Source: an uncultured Lachnospiraceae bacterium
GTDB lineage: Bacteria; Bacillota; Clostridia; Lachnospirales; Lachnospiraceae
DNA: 46,543 nucleotides
Assembly: GCA_946403625.1 (NCBI GenBank)
Contig: CAMJAP010000014.1
Coordinates: forward strand, 1-46,543
Reading direction: 5' to 3'
Position numbers and translations under genes: made by a program. This document shows, piece after piece, positions 2,073-25,085 of this stretch (position 1 is its first letter; the number at the start of each line of letters is the position of its first letter). The notes under the pieces are model-generated. The model did no database searches. It saw only the letters and a list, made by a program, of their open reading frames with translations, and had not been told where the DNA came from.

Positions 2073-3284
2073 ATGTTAATCGTGAAGAAGTTTGGCGGCA
2101 CTTCGGTCGCTAACAAGGAGAGGATCCTGAATGTTTGCCGTCGTTGCGCGGAAGAGTATCAAAAGGGTAACGATGTGGTTGTGGTACTTTCCGCAATGGG
2201 AAAGATGACGGATGAACTGATCGAGATGGCAAAGAACATCAATCCCAATCCGTCCAAGCGTGAGATGGATATGCTGCTGACCACCGGCGAGCAGACCAGC
2301 GTGGCACTGGCAGCAATGGCATTTGCGACTCTGGGTATCCCGGCAGTATCCTTAAATGCATTCCAGGTATCCATGCATACCACCTCGGCATATTCCAATG
2401 CCCGTTTGAAGAGAATCGATACCGAGCGTATCCGTCACGAGCTGGATCAGAGAAAGATCGTGCTGGTGACCGGTTTCCAGGGCATCAATAAATACGGCGA
2501 TTATACGACACTGGGACGCGGCGGCTCCGATACTACGGCAGTAGCATTGGCAGCAGCTCTGAAGGCAGATGCGTGCGAGATCTATACCGATGTGGACGGC
2601 GTTTACACTGCAGATCCGCGTGTGGTAAAGAAAGCCCGCAAGATGGAAGAGATCACTTATGATGAAATGCTGGATCTGGCGACTTTGGGTGCAGGCGTTC
2701 TGCACAATCGTTCCGTGGAACTGGCAAAGAAATACGGCGTACAGTTGGTAGTACGTTCCAGCTTAACAAATGAAGAAGGAACAGTAGTCAAGGAGGTAGT
2801 AAAAGTGGAAAGAATGTTAGTAAGTGGTGTTGCATGCGATAAGAACTGCGCAAAGATCTCTGTGATCGGACTGAGCGACAAGCCGGGTTCGGCATTCCGT
2901 CTGTTCGATGCATTGGCACAGGCAAACATCAACGTAGATATGATCCTGCAGTCCGTAGGACGTGACAATACACAGGATATCGCATTTACCGTAACCGGTG
3001 ACAATGCAGACGATGCGATCCATGTGATCGAAGAGAGCAAGAAGAGACTGGGCTATCAGAAGCTGGAGCTGGAGAAGGGCGTTGCAAAGGTATCCGTTGT
3101 AGGTGCCGGCATGATGAGCAACCCGGGCGTTGCTGCAAAGATGTTTGAGTGCCTGTATAACTCCAACATCAACATCAAGATGATCTCTACTTCCGAGATC
3201 CGTGTAACCGTTCTGATCGACGAGAAGGAAGTGGAGCGCGCTATGAACGCAGCACACGAGATCTTCGGTCTGGATGAGGCTTAA
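2073..3284 (+). CDS. lysC: aspartate kinase
   Basis: Phosphorylates aspartate, the first step to lysine, threonine, methionine and diaminopimelate. The N-terminal amino-acid kinase domain starts with KKFGGTSVANKERI and carries LTTGEQTSVALAAMA and TTLGRGGSDTTAVALA. The C-terminal part, from about residue 262, is a pair of ACT domains (KISVIGLSDKPGSAFRLF and KVSVVGAGMMSNPGVAAKMF), the usual lysine/threonine sensor. At 403 residues it matches B. subtilis aspartokinase II. The ribosome site is AAGGAGGAAAG. A second strong ribosome site inside the gene would give the ACT-domain subunit on its own (see the entry at 2790). It forms an operon with hom and ends at a clear terminator. Confidence 0.96.
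   Translation: MLIVKKFGGTSVANKERILNVCRRCAEEYQKGNDVVVVLSAMGKMTDELIEMAKNINPNPSKREMDMLLTTGEQTSVALAAMAFATLGIPAVSLNAFQVSMHTTSAYSNARLKRIDTERIRHELDQRKIVLVTGFQGINKYGDYTTLGRGGSDTTAVALAAALKADACEIYTDVDGVYTADPRVVKKARKMEEITYDEMLDLATLGAGVLHNRSVELAKKYGVQLVVRSSLTNEEGTVVKEVVKVERMLVSGVACDKNCAKISVIGLSDKPGSAFRLFDALAQANINVDMILQSVGRDNTQDIAFTVTGDNADDAIHVIEESKKRLGYQKLELEKGVAKVSVVGAGMMSNPGVAAKMFECLYNSNINIKMISTSEIRVTVLIDEKEVERAMNAAHEIFGLDEA
2790..3284 (+). CDS. internal start: aspartate kinase beta (ACT-only) subunit
   Basis: Inside lysC and in the same frame, AAGGAGGT at 2790-2797 is followed 7 bases later by GTG at 2805 (codon 245) and by ATG at 2814 (codon 248). Translation from the GTG would make a 159-residue protein (VERMLVSG...) holding only the two ACT domains. 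B. subtilis aspartokinase II is known to be an alpha2-beta2 enzyme whose roughly 160-residue beta subunit comes from exactly this kind of in-phase internal start. The coordinates run from the ribosome site to the shared stop. The site is seen; use of it is inferred. Confidence 0.72.
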   Translation, partial: KEVVKVERMLVSGVACDKNCAKISVIGLSDKPGSAFRLFDALAQANINVDMILQSVGRDNTQDIAFTVTGDNADDAIHVIEESKKRLGYQKLELEKGVAKVSVVGAGMMSNPGVAAKMFECLYNSNINIKMISTSEIRVTVLIDEKEVERAMNAAHEIFGLDEA

Positions 3285-3334
3285 TCCGCCCATAATCGAC
3301 GATTAAAGCGTTATATAATCCATAAGATATGAGT

Positions 3335-3364
3335 AAAGGCATCTGCTGGTCAGGTGCCTTTTTT
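3335..3364 (+). terminator. lysC terminator
   Basis: AAAGGCATC (3335-3343) pairs with GGTGCCTTT around a 9-base loop and runs into six T, 50 bases after the lysC stop. It closes the hom-lysC operon and separates it from the RNA locus that follows. Confidence 0.85.
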
Positions 3365-3444
3365 ATGTCATGATAAAGGGTTAGACATTTCGAAGAAAAA
3401 GAGATAAAGAGAAGATAAAACAAGAAAAATATTTGCAAAATGTA

Positions 3445-3472
3445 TTGACAAATACAGTATATATGATAATAT
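3445..3472 (+). promoter_or_regulatory. promoter of the standalone structured RNA
   Basis: A perfect TTGACA at 3445-3450, 16 bases, then TAATAT at 3467-3472 (GATAAT overlaps it). Transcription would begin near 3479, just before the first hairpin arm at 3483, which fits an RNA gene with its 5' end folded. Confidence 0.75.
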
Positions 3473-3478
3473 ATATAC

Positions 3479-3945
3479 ATAACAACAACACAGAGTTGTT
3501 GATCACATAAAAGATCCGGTAAACAAGGATAATGTGATGGGAACCTTACAACGAAAGAGAGGTACAGTCCACCGGAAAGGTAAGTAATGTATCCTAAGGG
3601 GAACGCCATAGAGCAGAGGCCGGAGAACGGGGTGGGAGCCCACAAGGACCGAAGCAGGACGGAAGGAACCGGGAGGGTACAAAGGATCGGAGGAGAAGCT
3701 TATTTAAGTTTCATCGACTCGAGCAGCGAAGCACATAACAGACCGCTGCAGCAGAAGTGCAAAGATGGAGGATGATAGGCGACAAATCTGAGAGGCAGGT
3801 CAACTGAATATCGGATGTCCGCACAAAATCTTGTGAGAAACGGACGAAAAAGACTTTCACCAGGAGGTATGGTCCATTGGATTGTGAAGCAGTATGAAAG
3901 CCCTTGCAGATCGATAAATCAGATGTGCAGGGGCTTTCATCATGC
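3479..3945 (+). ncRNA. unidentified large structured non-coding RNA
   Basis: About 465 bases between a consensus promoter and an intrinsic terminator, with no convincing coding frame; the in-frame ATG at 3587 lacks a ribosome site and yields a low-complexity peptide. The stretch is a chain of helices: 3483-3489/3495-3501; 3502-3508/3532-3538 with inner 3514-3517/3527-3530; 3545-3549/3580-3584; CCGG 3620-3623/3669-3672 enclosing GTGG 3632-3635/3640-3643 with a GAGC tetraloop; 3723-3727/3745-3749; 3817-3821/3841-3845 with inner 3822-3826/3831-3835; 3855-3860/3884-3889; then the terminator. Purine-rich unpaired segments (GGGGAACGCC, GGACGGAAGGAACCGG) lie between them. No gene directly follows, so a cis riboswitch is unlikely. 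It lacks the conserved cores of RNase P RNA, tmRNA, SRP RNA and T-box leaders. Large Clostridial RNAs such as OLE, ROOL or raiA remain possible. Confidence 0.72.
3894..3945 (+). terminator. terminator of the structured RNA
   Basis: A 15-base-pair stem with one G-T pair, 3894-3908 with 3926-3940 (ATGAAAGCCCTTGCA opposite TGCAGGGGCTTTCAT), 17-base loop, followed by a T-rich stretch. It defines the 3' end of the RNA upstream of the next promoter. Confidence 0.8.
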
Positions 3946-3954
3946 TTTTCTTTC

Positions 3955-3983
3955 TTGCATTTCCCCGGTACGCGTGGTATTAT
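3955..3983 (+). promoter_or_regulatory. promoter of the GH3-like gene
   Basis: TTGCAT (3955-3960), 17 bases, TATTAT (3978-3983). It lies directly after the RNA terminator and leaves a leader of about 50 nt before the ATG at 4042, showing that the GH3-like gene is transcribed separately from the RNA. Confidence 0.55.
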
Positions 3984-4041
3984 GGAAAACATAATTGTGG
4001 CGTTTACATAACTTTTATATATAGCTGGGGAGAGATCCGGA

Positions 4042-5394
4042 ATGGGAAAGAATAAGCAGGAAGACCGCAGAGAATACAGGCGAAAACGCAGGATACGAAA
4101 TCAGATACTGGCATATCTGGTATTGCTCGTACTGCTGGCATTATTGATCTTTGGCGGATTTGAGTTGATCCGTATGATCACGGGCAAATGGAAAGGACAG
4201 CCGGGCGGCGAAACCGTGGCAGCAGCGCCGGAGACGCCGACGGAAGAGCCGGAGCCCACACCGGAGGAGCCGGCAACGATCTCCACACCGGATCCGGTAG
4301 AAGAGTTTACGGAGCCGGTCACGGAAGCACCGGAAGAGCCGACGATGGATCCGGCGATCCAGGCACTTTTGGACGGAATGACCATTGAGCAGAAGGTCGA
4401 CGGCCTGTTTCTGGTCAGCCCGGAGGCTCTGACCAACGTAGAGCGTGCAACCAAGGCGGGAGACGGTACCAGAGCGGCACTGGAGCAGTATGCCGTGGGT
4501 GGCATTCTGTACAGTTCCAATAATGTGAATCACGCGGAGCAGTTCAAGGAAATGATCAGCACGACCAAGGATATGTATCGTGAACTGTATTCACGTAATG
4601 TCCTGACCATGGTACGGGAAGAAGGCGCGGTCAATACCATTGCCGGTAATGCAACCAAGGTAGAAGCGGTATCTTCCGCACCCGAGCTGGGAGAGTCCGG
4701 CAATCGTGAGAATGCAACCGAGGCGTTTCAGGCGATCGGAGAATATCTGACCGAATATGGTATCGATGCCGATCTGGTATCGATCGCTGCGGTAAAGACC
4801 GAAGAAAACAGCTATCTGAAGGATCGATGCTTCAGTGATGATGCGGATATTGCGGCATCTATGACCGGTGCGGCAGTAGAGGGTATGCTGCAGACCAATG
4901 CGCTGCCCTGTCTGGCGGCGTTCCCGGGAGAGGGCGGTTTGAAGACGGACCCGGATAAGGGCGCCGGCAGCTCGGATAAGAGCCTGGAAGATCTGCAGGC
5001 CTGTGAGTTCCTGCCGTTTCGTTCCGGTATCGAAGCGGGCGTTCCGATGGTAATGGTGAGTGCGATGCAGACACCGACCGCATCCGGGGAAGAGATCCCC
5101 TGTATGCTTTCGGATCATATGATGACGGAGCAGCTGCGTTCGGAACTTGGGTTTGAAGGCGTGATCATCACTGCGCCGGTAGAACAGATCCCGTCCTCCG
5201 CAGGGATTGATGCGGGAGATGCGGCGAAGCTGGCGATCCTGGCCGGAGCCGATATGATCACGGTTTATAAGCACGATCACTTTGATGAAGCCAGACAGGC
5301 GATCCTGGATGCAGTGAATGACGGAACGATCAGCGAGGAGCGTATCAATGAATCGTTGATCCGGATCTATACGATGGAACTGGATCGTATGTAA
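4042..5394 (+). CDS. membrane-anchored GH3 (NagZ-like) pseudo-glycosidase
   Basis: A 450-residue type II membrane protein. A basic N-terminus is followed by one hydrophobic helix (about residues 22-47), a 60-residue Pro/Glu/Thr linker, then a glycoside hydrolase family 3 fold from about residue 105 (LLDGMTIEQKVDGLFLVSPE, VGGILYSSNNV, LGFEGVIIT). In active NagZ-type enzymes the general-base loop reads KHFPGHG and the nucleophile is Asp in a VxTD motif. Here the loop is AAFPGEG (Ala292-Gly298) and the nucleophile position is Ala378 in VIITAPVE, so both catalytic elements are gone. I infer a non-enzymatic extracellular role, perhaps binding glycan or peptidoglycan. The ribosome site is GGGGAGAGATCC. 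The frame is intact with normal codon use, so this is not a decaying gene. Confidence 0.85.
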   Translation: MGKNKQEDRREYRRKRRIRNQILAYLVLLVLLALLIFGGFELIRMITGKWKGQPGGETVAAAPETPTEEPEPTPEEPATISTPDPVEEFTEPVTEAPEEPTMDPAIQALLDGMTIEQKVDGLFLVSPEALTNVERATKAGDGTRAALEQYAVGGILYSSNNVNHAEQFKEMISTTKDMYRELYSRNVLTMVREEGAVNTIAGNATKVEAVSSAPELGESGNRENATEAFQAIGEYLTEYGIDADLVSIAAVKTEENSYLKDRCFSDDADIAASMTGAAVEGMLQTNALPCLAAFPGEGGLKTDPDKGAGSSDKSLEDLQACEFLPFRSGIEAGVPMVMVSAMQTPTASGEEIPCMLSDHMMTEQLRSELGFEGVIITAPVEQIPSSAGIDAGDAAKLAILAGADMITVYKHDHFDEARQAILDAVNDGTISEERINESLIRIYTMELDRM

Positions 5395-5530: not shown

Positions 5531-5603
5531 GCGATAGTGGTGCAGTTGGTAGCACACGACCTTGCCAAGGTTGAGCTCGCGGGTTCGAGTCCCGTCTATC
5601 GCT
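5531..5603 (+). tRNA. tRNA-Gly (anticodon GCC)
   Basis: Full cloverleaf of 73 bases: acceptor GCGATAG/CTATCGC with discriminator T, D arm with AGTTGGTAGC, anticodon stem CGACC/GGTTG with loop TTGCCAA (GCC reads GGC/GGT glycine codons), T arm GCGGG-TTCGAGT-CCCGT. The 3' CCA is not encoded. It is a single-tRNA transcription unit with its own promoter and terminator. Confidence 0.96.
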
Positions 5604-22412: not shown

Positions 22413-22442
22413 CGGTGAAAAAACAACAGGAGGATGACAGCA

Positions 22443-23885
22443 ATGAAGAAGAAAGCAGTAGCAGCGATGCTTGCATTAACTTGTACACTGGGGGCGTGCG
22501 GAACGACAGAACCCGCGGTGCAGGAGAAGGTGACGGAAACGGTAGAACAGCCGCAGAGCGCGGAGGAAACAACGGCGCCGGAGGAAACGCCGGCACAGGA
22601 GACTCCGGCAGAAACACCGGCCGCGGAAGAAGGCACAGCGCAGACCGCACAGGGGGAGGAAACCCTGCCGGTTACCGGCAGCGGGCAAAATGAAAACCTG
22701 ACGGAAGGGATCGAAAAGATCGAAGCCCCTGCAGCAGGGATCACGGAGGAACAGATCGGAGCGCTGTCAAAAGTATCGATGGATCTGCTGGCAGAGTCCG
22801 TAGCTTTTGAGGGGAACCATCCGAATGTGCTGCTTTCGCCGACTTCCATCGCGATCGCCTTCGGTATGGCGGAAAACGGCGCGACCGGAGACACCCTCGC
22901 GGATATGGAGCGCGTGATCGGCGGCGGGATCCCGATCGATGAGATGAATCCGCTCTTATATAATATGACCGAACATCTGCGAAATGCCAACGGCGTCGAT
23001 TGGAATGTGGCGAACTCCGTCTGGTTTCGGGATGACGGTATGTGGCGTGTAAAGGAAGAATTTGCGGCAAAGGCGCTGTCATGGTACGGTGCGGATGTCT
23101 GGAAGGCGCCGTTTGACGATACCACTACGGTTGCGATCAACAATTGGGTCTCCGAACAGACGAAAGGGATGATCCCGGAAGTGATCAAACAGATTCCGCG
23201 GGACGCAGGAATGTATCTGATCAATGCGTTGGCCTTCGAAGGCGAATGGATGGAGGAGTACGAAGACGACGACATTTTGGAGAATCGTCAGTTTACCAAT
23301 GCGGACGGAAGCAAGACCGATGTTACTATGCTTGCCAGTACGGAAAATGCCTATTTTGAGCTGGGGGACGGGATCGGCTTTTTGAAAGAATATAAGGGTG
23401 GGGAGTATTCCTTTATGGGAATCCTTCCGGAGAAAGGCACCGATCTGGATGATTACATCGCGTCTCTGGCTGCCGGGGATGCGGATCTGGCTGAGGCGAT
23501 CCGCAACTGCACGTATGGGACTGTTATCGTGCAGATCCCGGAATTCCAGAAGGATTACAGCATCGAGATGGTGGATGTGCTTGAGAATATGGGAATGACG
23601 CTGCCGTTCCTGCAGGGGATCGCGGAGTTTACGGAGATGATGGAAACAGTAGACGGCTCTCCTTACGATGTCTGGATCGGAAATGTTTTGCATAAGACAC
23701 ATATCGAAGTGGATCGTGCGGGTACCAGAGCTGCAGCGGTAACGGTGATCGAGATGGATCGCTGCGGGGCGATTATGCCGGTGGAAGATCCGGTGAGAGT
23801 GATCCTGGATCGTCCGTTTATCTACGGCATTATCGATAATGAAACCGGCCTGCCGGTATTTCTGGGGTGCGTAAACAGCCTGTAA
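22443..23885 (+). CDS. serpin-family protease inhibitor, lipoprotein
   Basis: A 480-residue exported serpin. The signal peptide ends in a lipobox, TLGAC, giving lipid-modified Cys19. A 90-residue Glu/Pro/Thr/Ala linker follows, then the serpin fold from about residue 105 (LLSPTSIAIAFGMAENGATG, NVANSVWFR, YLINALAFEGEW, FMGILPEKG). The reactive-loop hinge reads AGTRAAAVT (Gly427-Thr434), small residues as in inhibitory serpins, and the loop continues VIEMDRCGAIM before DRPFIYGI. Counting from the hinge puts P1 near Arg440-Gly442. It would trap host or microbial serine or cysteine proteases at the cell surface. AGGAGG at 22428-22433 sets the start at 22443. It appears to be transcribed alone. 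Confidence 0.92.
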   Translation: MKKKAVAAMLALTCTLGACGTTEPAVQEKVTETVEQPQSAEETTAPEETPAQETPAETPAAEEGTAQTAQGEETLPVTGSGQNENLTEGIEKIEAPAAGITEEQIGALSKVSMDLLAESVAFEGNHPNVLLSPTSIAIAFGMAENGATGDTLADMERVIGGGIPIDEMNPLLYNMTEHLRNANGVDWNVANSVWFRDDGMWRVKEEFAAKALSWYGADVWKAPFDDTTTVAINNWVSEQTKGMIPEVIKQIPRDAGMYLINALAFEGEWMEEYEDDDILENRQFTNADGSKTDVTMLASTENAYFELGDGIGFLKEYKGGEYSFMGILPEKGTDLDDYIASLAAGDADLAEAIRNCTYGTVIVQIPEFQKDYSIEMVDVLENMGMTLPFLQGIAEFTEMMETVDGSPYDVWIGNVLHKTHIEVDRAGTRAAAVTVIEMDRCGAIMPVEDPVRVILDRPFIYGIIDNETGLPVFLGCVNSL

Positions 23886-24074: not shown

Positions 24075-25085
24075 ATGCCGAAGAAACTGACCTATGAACA
24101 GTTTATTGATATGATTCGGAAGCGGCTGATCGAAGAGTATGCCGTTACGGAGGAACAGATAAAGTATTATGCCAAGGGAACGACATCCGACGATGCGAAG
24201 ATGCAGGAGTGGATCCGCGACTGCAACCAACTCTACAACGGGGAAGCATCGGAGGCGCTGCTCAATGATTTTTTGATCGTGGAGACACCGGAAGATGAGA
24301 ATATCACCGGCGTCAGCCGCATTGCGATCGAGAAGCTGTATCAGGATTACCTGGAAAAGGGAATGGACTATGCTTACGAGATCGTTCGGGGCGGACAGGC
24401 CGATCTGGAAAAGTCCCGGGGGAATCACGAGGCATTGCGGACCCGTGCGCAGGGCGATTATGAAGCGATGAAAGAGCAATTGATCATCCGGCCTCTGAAC
24501 TACGGGCTGCATATGCGGGAACTGAAGGGCTGCGTATATCAGAAGTTCAGCGACTTTGCATTTGTGCTGTACCAGCTGGTGAGCGACGAGGGAGATTCGC
24601 TGATCAGCAGCAAGATCAAGCGCGAGGAATTGGAGCAGTGGGGATGCGCGGACCGGGAAGAAGAGGTTATGAAGGAAGCGATGGCCAATACCATGCGCCG
24701 TTTTCCGCCGGTTGTTTATGATTACCGCATCCGACAGGAAGTGAATTTCTTAGAGGCGGATGTGACACGCAAGGATATCATGATGCAGGCAGGGCTGGCA
24801 GGAAACCATATCCTGCTGTCCACTTCCAAATGTACGAACGGTGCGGTGGCGTTGTTTTATCCCGGTGTCGTGGAAAAGATGATGCAGGTGATGGGCGGAC
24901 CGTTCAATGCGGTGCTTATGAATACGAACGATATTCTGATCTTTGATCTGAGAGAACGGAATGTAACGAGCTTTGCGAAGCAGGCCGGACAGTCCGGAAA
25001 GATGGGAGAGATGCTTTCTTCCAAGGTGTATCATTGTGACGAAAACGGCATCAATCCGGCCACGCAGTTTGTGACCAGGCTTTAA
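24075..25085 (+). CDS. DUF5688-like protein
   Basis: A 336-residue soluble protein without signal or membrane segments. It opens with LTYEQFIDMIRKRLIEEY, has a central HMRELKGCVYQKFSDFAFVL segment, and a C-terminal part with KDIMMQAGLAGNHILLSTSK and NGAVALFYPGVVEKM. This resembles the DUF5688 proteins that are expanded in Lachnospiraceae genomes; the family assignment is from memory of that layout. No catalytic motif is recognisable. AAAGGAGGTTTATCTT is a strong ribosome site. The gene has its own promoter and lies between unrelated genes. It may be a conserved lineage-specific cytoplasmic protein; the function is unknown. Confidence 0.8.
   Translation: MPKKLTYEQFIDMIRKRLIEEYAVTEEQIKYYAKGTTSDDAKMQEWIRDCNQLYNGEASEALLNDFLIVETPEDENITGVSRIAIEKLYQDYLEKGMDYAYEIVRGGQADLEKSRGNHEALRTRAQGDYEAMKEQLIIRPLNYGLHMRELKGCVYQKFSDFAFVLYQLVSDEGDSLISSKIKREELEQWGCADREEEVMKEAMANTMRRFPPVVYDYRIRQEVNFLEADVTRKDIMMQAGLAGNHILLSTSKCTNGAVALFYPGVVEKMMQVMGGPFNAVLMNTNDILIFDLRERNVTSFAKQAGQSGKMGEMLSSKVYHCDENGINPATQFVTRL

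What the first reader, a model, noticed from the sequence alone, without database searches (positions are those of the whole stretch)
3445..3945. Standalone, highly structured RNA of about 465 nt with no recognised family
The sequence shows a consensus promoter (TTGACA-16-TAATAT), at least seven helices in series, GA-rich unpaired segments and a 15-base-pair terminator, with no coding frame and no gene in cis. Known large RNAs of Clostridia (OLE, ROOL, GOLLD, raiA) share this general character, but I cannot match any core. RNase P RNA, tmRNA and SRP RNA signatures are absent. It is the best candidate here for an undescribed element.
Basis: partly seen in the sequence, partly recalled or inferred. 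Interest (0 to 1): 0.78.

Follow-up and report, generated by a model that had tools for sequence, protein, structure and literature searches.

The report
Undescribed large RNA of rumen bacteria
Between two ordinary genes of a rumen bacterium lies a gene for a roughly 470-letter folded RNA that matches no catalogued RNA family, is kept with the same fold in many related species, and looks strongly expressed; what it does is not yet known.

Summary
Window 3479-3945 (+) is a standalone RNA gene with its own promoter and terminator. No Rfam 15 family reaches its cut-off, and only unrelated weak hits appear at E<=10. Homologues occur in 23 of 35 genomes of its genus, its own included: rumen Lachnospiraceae such as XPB1003, NK4A179 and AB2028. 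No credible one was found in samples of the family and order. Covariation is strong: 18 of 32 core pairs change on both sides and 91.7% of cells pair, versus 30-54% when partners are slid. The promoter (A-tracts, TTGACA, 16 nt, TGn-TAnnAT) is kept in 23 of 23. Four sister genomes have the two neighbour genes side by side without it. Two copies of GAGGUANRG(U/A)CC, 248-322 nt apart, are the most constant part; the second is a Shine-Dalgarno sequence 9 nt before a six-codon TTG frame that ends in the terminator's foot in 23 of 23. I propose an abundant trans-acting RNA that contacts ribosomes, or another partner, through these motifs. Mechanism is inferred, not shown.

The parts
3420..3444 (+). 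A/T-rich stretch directly upstream of the -35 box (UP-element-like)
   Evidence: 25 nt upstream of -35 are on average 86% A+T in 23 homologues, with A-tracts
3445..3472 (+). promoter: TTGACA, 16-nt spacer, TAATAT with extended -10 TG
   Evidence: 16-nt spacer and TGn before the -10 in 23 of 23 homologues; TTGACA, used as the anchor, was present in all 23
3479..3945 (+). the RNA, start to terminator (start inferred from the -10 box)
   Evidence: homologues in 23 of 35 genus genomes, own included; no Rfam family over cut-off
3483..3501 (+). P1, 5' hairpin CAACAAC / GUUGUUG
   Evidence: top pair C-G in 14, G-C in 8, unpaired in 1 of 23 (counted from the loops printed)
3559..3571 (+). motif M1, GAGGUACAGUCCA
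   Evidence: GAGGUANRG(U/A)CC in 23 of 23, with A in 5; GAGGTANRGTCCA occurs twice in the genome, both here
3589..3594 (+). P3, 5' strand GUAUCC
   Evidence: pairs with 3675-3680; pair 4 is UG 11, CG 8, UA 2, GC 2 of 23
3595..3674 (+). variable domain closed by P3; at least three dissimilar sequence types in the genus, by eye
   Evidence: alignment
3675..3680 (+). P3, 3' strand GGGUAC
3687..3691 (+). P4, 5' strand (3' strand 3787-3791)
   Evidence: all 5 pairs change on both sides, 81.8% of cells paired
3698..3704 (+). P5, 5' strand (3' strand 3774-3780)
   Evidence: 5 of 7 pairs change on both sides, 97.4% of cells paired
3710..3715 (+). P6, 5' strand (3' strand 3764-3769)
   Evidence: 100% of cells paired, no two-sided change in 22 sequences; other bases possible in L023
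3723..3749 (+). P7 hairpin (3723-3728 with 3744-3749)
   Evidence: 3 of 6 pairs change on both sides, 82.6% of cells paired
3751..3760 (+). P8 hairpin (3751-3753 with 3758-3760)
   Evidence: 2 of 3 pairs change on both sides, 83.1% of cells paired
3787..3791 (+). P4, 3' strand
3798..3811 (+). conserved segment outside the named helices, GGUCAACUGAAUAU
   Evidence: CAA and AAUA invariant in 22 aligned sequences
3817..3845 (+). P10 hairpin GUCCG / CGGAC
   Evidence: 3 of 5 pairs change on both sides, 100% of cells paired
3864..3876 (+). motif M2, GAGGUAUGGUCCA, with Shine-Dalgarno AGGAGG at 3862-3867
   Evidence: GAGGUANRGUCC in 23 of 23; preceded to give AGGAGG in 19, TGGAGG in 3, AAGAGG in 1
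3877..3897 (+). micro-ORF TTG + 5 codons + stop (TTG GAT TGT GAA GCA GTA TGA)
   Evidence: TTG, five sense codons and a stop in 23 of 23 homologues; translation not shown
3895..3939 (+). terminator hairpin (3895-3908 with 3926-3939)
   Evidence: sequence; not listed by the scan
4042..5394 (+). neighbour: GH3-domain gene, not part of the RNA
   Evidence: PF00933; same-strand neighbour in 22 of 23 homologous loci, the contig of the other (L005) ending before it

Best explanation
Shown: an independent RNA gene of about 467 nt with its own promoter and terminator, with a conserved architecture (P1; P3 closing a variable domain; P4-P5-P6 nested around P7 and P8; P10; terminator), found at one place in 23 of 35 genomes of one genus of rumen Lachnospiraceae. 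Inferred: it is abundant and acts in trans rather than on its neighbour. The helices form a scaffold that presents two near-identical sequences, GAGGUANRG(U/A)CC, to a partner. The likeliest partner is the ribosome. GAGGU and the downstream UCC are complementary to the 3' end of 16S rRNA (5'-GGAUCACCUCCU, recalled). The second copy is also the Shine-Dalgarno sequence of a six-codon reading frame whose stop lies in the foot of the terminator. In this view 30S subunits bind the RNA, and translation of the micro-ORF or ribosome binding itself sets the stability or output of the RNA, or holds back part of the ribosome pool. A protein that reads GAGGUANRG(U/A)CC is the alternative partner that I cannot exclude.
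For: No Rfam family over cut-off, no recurring weak one. Covariation: 18 of 32 pairs change on both sides (8.9 in shuffles, 0 of 500 as high), slid controls 30-54% paired. P3 pair 4 has four pair types and pairs in 23 of 23. The divergent L023, not in the model, can form P4, P5 and P6 with other bases. Promoter: 16-nt spacer and TGn in 23 of 23, A/T-rich upstream. GH3 has a promoter-like sequence of its own in many loci, by eye, and four sister genomes have aspartokinase and GH3 side by side without the RNA. M1 and M2 are the only two copies of GAGGTANRGTCCA in the 3.5-Mb genome. Computed duplex of M2 with a 16S tail: -16.2 kcal/mol. Micro-ORF in 23 of 23.
Against: No expression data; abundance is read from the promoter alone. 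M1's computed duplex with the 16S tail (-10.8 kcal/mol) is hardly better than a plain GAGGU-containing control string (-10.4). Five of 23 M1 copies read GACC, which breaks a pair with 16S, and L023's M2 is AAGAGG. I saw no start codon kept after M1. Folding predictions leave the halves of M1 and M2 on average 31-51% unpaired, the whole RNA 45%, so they are not clearly exposed. The variation of the stop codon can also be explained by pairing inside the terminator. Twelve of 35 genus genomes gave no match, some of them incomplete, so it is probably dispensable. One of the five measures, the number of further pair types, does not exceed shuffles (104 of 500 as high).
Confidence: 0.4

Rival explanations
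1. Trans-acting scaffold RNA whose GAGGUANRG(U/A)CC copies are read by an RNA-binding protein (or two subunits of one), as proposed for OLE or raiA-type RNPs; the reading frame is incidental.
For: Motif repeated twice in 23 of 23 on a covarying scaffold; I saw no start codon kept after M1, which fits binding better than translation. Protein partners are discussed for OLE (passages) and a possible association with proteins for raiA/ModT (abstract).
Against: No candidate protein; GAGGU is exactly the ribosome-binding sequence, which needs no special protein.
Confidence: 0.35
2. Cis-acting leader: a long 5' element with a terminator that controls the GH3-domain gene downstream through the micro-ORF.
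For: GH3 follows on the same strand in 22 of 23 loci, the contig of the other ending before it, also in the five loci where aspartokinase was not found upstream in the fetched stretch (L011, L012, L014, L020, L022).
Against: A promoter-like sequence for GH3 lies after the terminator in many loci, by eye; the distance to the first long frame varies from about 30 to 320 nt; GH3 sits next to aspartokinase without the RNA in G007, G011, G018 and G022; I saw no conserved antiterminator in the alignment.
Confidence: 0.1
3. CsrA sponge like CsrB: many GGA triplets titrate CsrA.
For: 19 of 23 carriers have a csrA match, in G001 only a short fragment; 8-22 GGA per RNA.
Against: GGA enrichment over shuffles is weak (z -0.8 to 2.8). 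Four of 23 carriers, 92-100% complete, have no csrA match (G012, G019, G025, G031) yet keep the motifs. M1 is GAGAGG, without GGA, in 12 of 23. Ten of 12 genus genomes without the RNA have csrA.
Confidence: 0.04
4. Remnant or member of a mobile element or intron (group II, circularly permuted group II, IS-linked guide RNA).
For: It is present or absent as a unit between the same two genes in the genomes compared.
Against: One place per genome, same neighbours; own promoter and terminator; no Rfam intron or guide RNA over cut-off - the plastid petD intron hit at 14.3 bits on the other strand is far below its cut-off of 65.5; no match in phages or plasmids.
Confidence: 0.03

Closest known systems
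raiA motif RNA / ModT (Rfam RF03072)
   Same: Structured RNA of Bacillota; the abstract of PMC11706538 reports abundance rivalling rRNA and an effect on growth transition. The promoter of the present RNA suggests strong expression too.
   Different: About 205 nt (passage of PMC12286853) against about 467 nt; no RF03072 match here. No raiA hit in the genus, but no control genome rang either, so its absence is not shown.
OLE RNA
   Same: Large, ornate bacterial RNA; proposed to sequester the ribosomal protein RpsU (passage of PMC12286853).
   Different: No OLE match in the Rfam searches; found in one genus only.
ROOL and GOLLD RNAs
   Same: Large multi-helix RNAs of unknown function; ROOL is named for the rumen (abstract in listing).
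   Different: Those are encoded in phages and prophages, often near tRNA islands (passages of PMC12286853). This one lies between conserved chromosomal genes, with no match in phages or plasmids and none to those Rfam families. A tRNA-Gly gene does lie about 1.6 kb downstream.
RNAIII-type dual-function RNAs (recalled, no call)
   Same: About 500 nt, structured, with a short reading frame.
   Different: Frame of six codons only; RNA purine-rich where RNAIII has C-rich loops (recalled).
CsrB/RsmY-type sponges
   Same: GGA-containing; a sub-threshold RsmY match of 11.8 bits against a cut-off of 57.
   Different: The Csr link fails; the core is sequence-conserved and covarying.

Membership tests
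any Rfam 15 family | score at or above the family's gathering cut-off | tested here: not met
   one match in the whole window, a tRNA; 7 hits at E<=10 over 3250-4080, all far below cut-off
any Rfam 15 family | same family recurring weakly in homologues | tested here: not met
   17 of the 22 homologous loci other than L001 searched; 8 hits at E<=10, 8 different families
RNase P RNA | RF00010 or RF00011 match at this place | tested here: not met
   RF00010 over cut-off at G000:C179, not here; RF00011 no match in the genome
tmRNA | RF00023 match at this place | tested here: not met
   over cut-off at G000:C4, not here
raiA / ModT | RF03072 match | tested here: not met
   none in the window at cut-off or at E<=10 over 3250-4080
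CsrB-type CsrA sponge | CsrA present in carriers | tested here: not met
   4 of 23 carriers without a csrA match
ROOL/GOLLD | phage or prophage context | tested here: not met
   flanks are aspartokinase and GH3; no match in phages or plasmids
OLE/ROOL/GOLLD-like ornate RNAs (kind, not family) | homo-oligomeric three-dimensional structure | not testable with these tools
   needs cryo-EM or mass photometry
cis-regulatory leader of GH3 | dependence of the gene on the element | tested here: inconclusive
   GH3 kept without the RNA next to aspartokinase in G007, G011, G018, G022, which speaks against it; expression not testable here
translated micro-ORF | SD, start, constant length and stop in the homologues | tested here: met
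   TTG, five codons, stop in 23 of 23; GGAGG in 22 of 23
translated micro-ORF | ribosome footprint or product | not testable with these tools
   no ribosome profiling data here

The most novel reading that the evidence does not exclude
An abundant RNA built to bind the ribosome: two Shine-Dalgarno-like GAGGUANRG(U/A)CC sites on a folded scaffold capture 30S subunits, one of them feeding a six-codon reading frame that runs into the RNA's own terminator, so that free ribosomes control the RNA or the RNA controls free ribosomes.
Probability: 0.2. Interest if true: 0.85.

Novelty: new variant of a known kind. Interest (0 to 1): 0.64.

Why it matters
Large structured RNAs with strong covariation and no known family are uncommon, and the mechanisms of the known ones (OLE, ROOL, GOLLD, raiA) are still open. 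This one is compact, found at one place per genome, present in named strains (XPB1003, NK4A179, AB2028) and absent from close sisters. Carriers and non-carriers can therefore be compared directly, and the two short constant motifs give a defined handle for finding the partner. I rate it a new family within the loose kind of large standalone bacterial RNAs, not a member of any family tested.

Tried and rejected
RNase P resemblance: GAGGUANRGUCC and ACAGGAACCGG recall RNase P motifs (recalled), but the genome has an RNase P RNA elsewhere (its 5' end is cut by the contig end), no homologue searched gives even a weak RNase P hit, and the CCGG part lies in the variable helix P4.

M1 pairing with M2: folding put them together in a few homologues, but duplex energies are little better than shuffles (mean z -1.1) and the variable positions do not covary by eye.

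CsrA sponge: see rivals.

Alternative P3 pairing with M1 or M2: possible in most sequences by eye, but L020 and L022 changed P3 on both strands without matching changes in M1 or M2.

Wider distribution: weak model hits in G217, G357 and G532 (E 0.0018, 0.0081, 6e-5) lie in long open frames of 339, 482 and 413 codons and lack GAGGTANRGTCC; I treat them as chance. The Ruminococcus YE71 pattern match L043 and the 8 viral pattern matches gave no model hit at E<=10. The order and family searches are samples (392 and 397 genomes) run with stricter filters that lose weak matches, and the model missed G005 (L023) at E<=0.01 although blastn found it. Sequences as divergent as L023 could therefore have been missed elsewhere.

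raiA replacement: no raiA hit in 35 genomes, but no control rang either, so absence is not shown.

Rows dropped: L023 was left out of the model alignment A2 (22 of 23 used). L005 has no GH3 on its contig and was left out of the GH3 tree (22 carriers, 9 non-carriers); of the other three genus genomes without the RNA, G010 and G024 gave no GH3 match and the split match of G023 was not used. Empty sites were read in 4 of 12 genus genomes without the RNA; in the rest aspartokinase and GH3 were not found close together, or (G015) another frame lies between. L037, a 24th homologue close to L004, was seen but not counted.

Full report
What is there. Window 3445-3945 holds a complete small transcription unit on the + strand. 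A promoter (TTGACA, 16 nt, TAATAT, TG before the -10) is preceded by A-tracts. The RNA should start near 3479 and ends in a terminator hairpin with arms 3895-3908 and 3926-3939. Upstream lies an aspartokinase gene (2073-3284) followed by a terminator-like site at 3335-3361. Downstream a GH3-domain gene starts at 4042.

Not a known RNA. A scan of the window against 4227 Rfam families gives one match, a tRNA at 5531-5603. At E<=10 over 3250-4080 there are 7 hits, all unrelated and far below cut-off. In 17 of the 22 homologous loci other than L001, 8 hits at E<=10 belong to 8 different families. RNase P RNA and tmRNA of the same genome lie on other contigs. SRP RNA was not searched for.

Distribution. 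Blastn against 60 genomes finds 23, own included, all among the 35 of the same genus. A covariance model of the core finds 22 of those 35 (it misses G005). In samples of 392 genomes of the order and 397 of the family it finds only same-genus genomes plus three weak hits (G217, G357, G532), each inside a long open frame. An exact-pattern scan of a collection of 84,980 species genomes gave 23 stretches; 22 are homologous loci and one, from Ruminococcus YE71, is not. The titles name Lachnospiraceae in most cases, many from rumen or omasum; XPB1003, NK4A179 and AB2028 are not marked as metagenome assemblies. There was no match in phages or plasmids. The genus name was not looked up.

Place. GH3 follows on the same strand in 22 of 23 homologous loci; the contig of the other ends first. 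Aspartokinase lies upstream within the fetched stretch in 18 of 23. In 4 of the 12 genus genomes without the RNA (G007, G011, G018, G022) the matches to the two proteins are only 304-312 nt apart, against 757 nt between the frames in the window. In G015 another long frame lies after aspartokinase. So in those compared the cassette is present or absent as a unit. On a tree of the GH3 protein the carriers need three changes. This fits an old presence with losses, but a single origin is neither shown nor ruled out.

Structure. On a MAFFT alignment of 22 homologues made from sequence alone (A2), with helices named by inspection, 91.7% of 703 cells pair. 18 of 32 pairs have changes on both sides, against 8.9 in shuffles. 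Four of the five measures exceed all 500 shuffles; the number of further pair types does not (104 of 500 as high). Versions with the partners slid pair in 30-54% of cells. The structure was derived from these sequences, which favours it over the slid versions; the two-sided changes are the stronger evidence. In P4 all five pairs are compensated, for example CG 8, UA 7, UG 5, AU 1 at its outer pair. In P5 the A-U at columns 31-114 becomes G-C in four sequences. P3 joins 3589-3594 to 3675-3680, and its fourth pair is UG, CG, UA or GC in 23 of 23; its fifth and sixth pairs hold in 20 and 19 of 23. The outlier L023, not used in the model, can form P4, P5 and P6 with other bases, and P3, P7 and P10 with bases also seen elsewhere. 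Its predicted pair probabilities are 0.86-1.0 for P3 and P10 but only 0.04-0.31 for P4-P7. Folding energy without promoter and terminator is moderately low (z -1.19 to -4.62 in 23).

Expression. In 23 of 23 homologues TTGACA is followed after 16 nt by a TAnnAT box preceded by TGn, with 86% A+T in the 25 nt upstream. Strongly expressed stable RNAs use such promoters (general knowledge), so I infer high expression. No expression data were available.

Motifs. GAGGUANRG(U/A)CC occurs twice in each of 23 homologues, 248-322 nt apart. GAGGTANRGTCCA occurs nowhere else in the 3.5-Mb genome. The second copy is preceded so as to read AGGAGG in 19, TGGAGG in 3 and AAGAGG in 1 of 23; the first reads GAGAGG in 12 and NGGAGG in 11. 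The second copy is followed, 9 nt after AGGAGG, by TTG, five sense codons and a stop in 23 of 23. The stop is TGA, TAA or TAG, the second codon GAC, GAT or GAG, and the fourth GAA or GAG in 22 and GAT in L023. Because the stop overlaps the terminator stem, its constancy is only suggestive. The computed duplex with a 16S tail (recalled sequence) is -16.2 kcal/mol for M2 and -10.8 for M1; the full complement gives -23.1 and a plain GAGGU-containing string -10.4.

Mechanism. I rank highest a trans-acting RNA that meets ribosomes through these sites, then a scaffold for an unknown protein, then a leader of GH3. The CsrA sponge fails because four carriers of 92-100% completeness lack a csrA match and GGA is hardly enriched.

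Literature. Nine searches of the held library listed no paper that, by title and abstract, describes this RNA. Seen: the abstract and outline of PMC11706538, passages of PMC12286853, listings only for the rest.

Check. Mended: the split of the second copy's Shine-Dalgarno letters, the motif spacing, the pair probabilities and bases of L023, the failed fifth measure, the weak M1 duplex, and several statements made by eye.

Noticed in passing
L096 (genome G010), within the 900 nt printed from the end of the aspartokinase gene: Two arrays of short repeats follow the aspartokinase: units with GATAAGCTTGCAAGATT, then units in which GCACCGCCT and AGGCGGTGC face each other. Seen only by eye.
   Followed up: no
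L095 (genome G015), 2726-4201, directly after the aspartokinase gene: In this genome without the RNA, a frame of at least 492 codons (cut by the end of the locus) with a hydrophobic-looking start follows the aspartokinase.
   Followed up: partly
window 22434-23885: A serpin-domain gene (PF00079), followed by a DUF5688 gene at 24075-25085.
   Followed up: no
window 3955-3983: TTGCAT-17-TATTAT with TG before the -10, a possible promoter of the GH3 gene; similar sequences follow the RNA in many homologues by eye. Not listed by the scan.
   Followed up: partly
window 3895-3939: The terminator stem (CCCUUGCAGA) is strikingly conserved across the homologues; whether the same stem recurs at other genes was not checked.
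   Followed up: no
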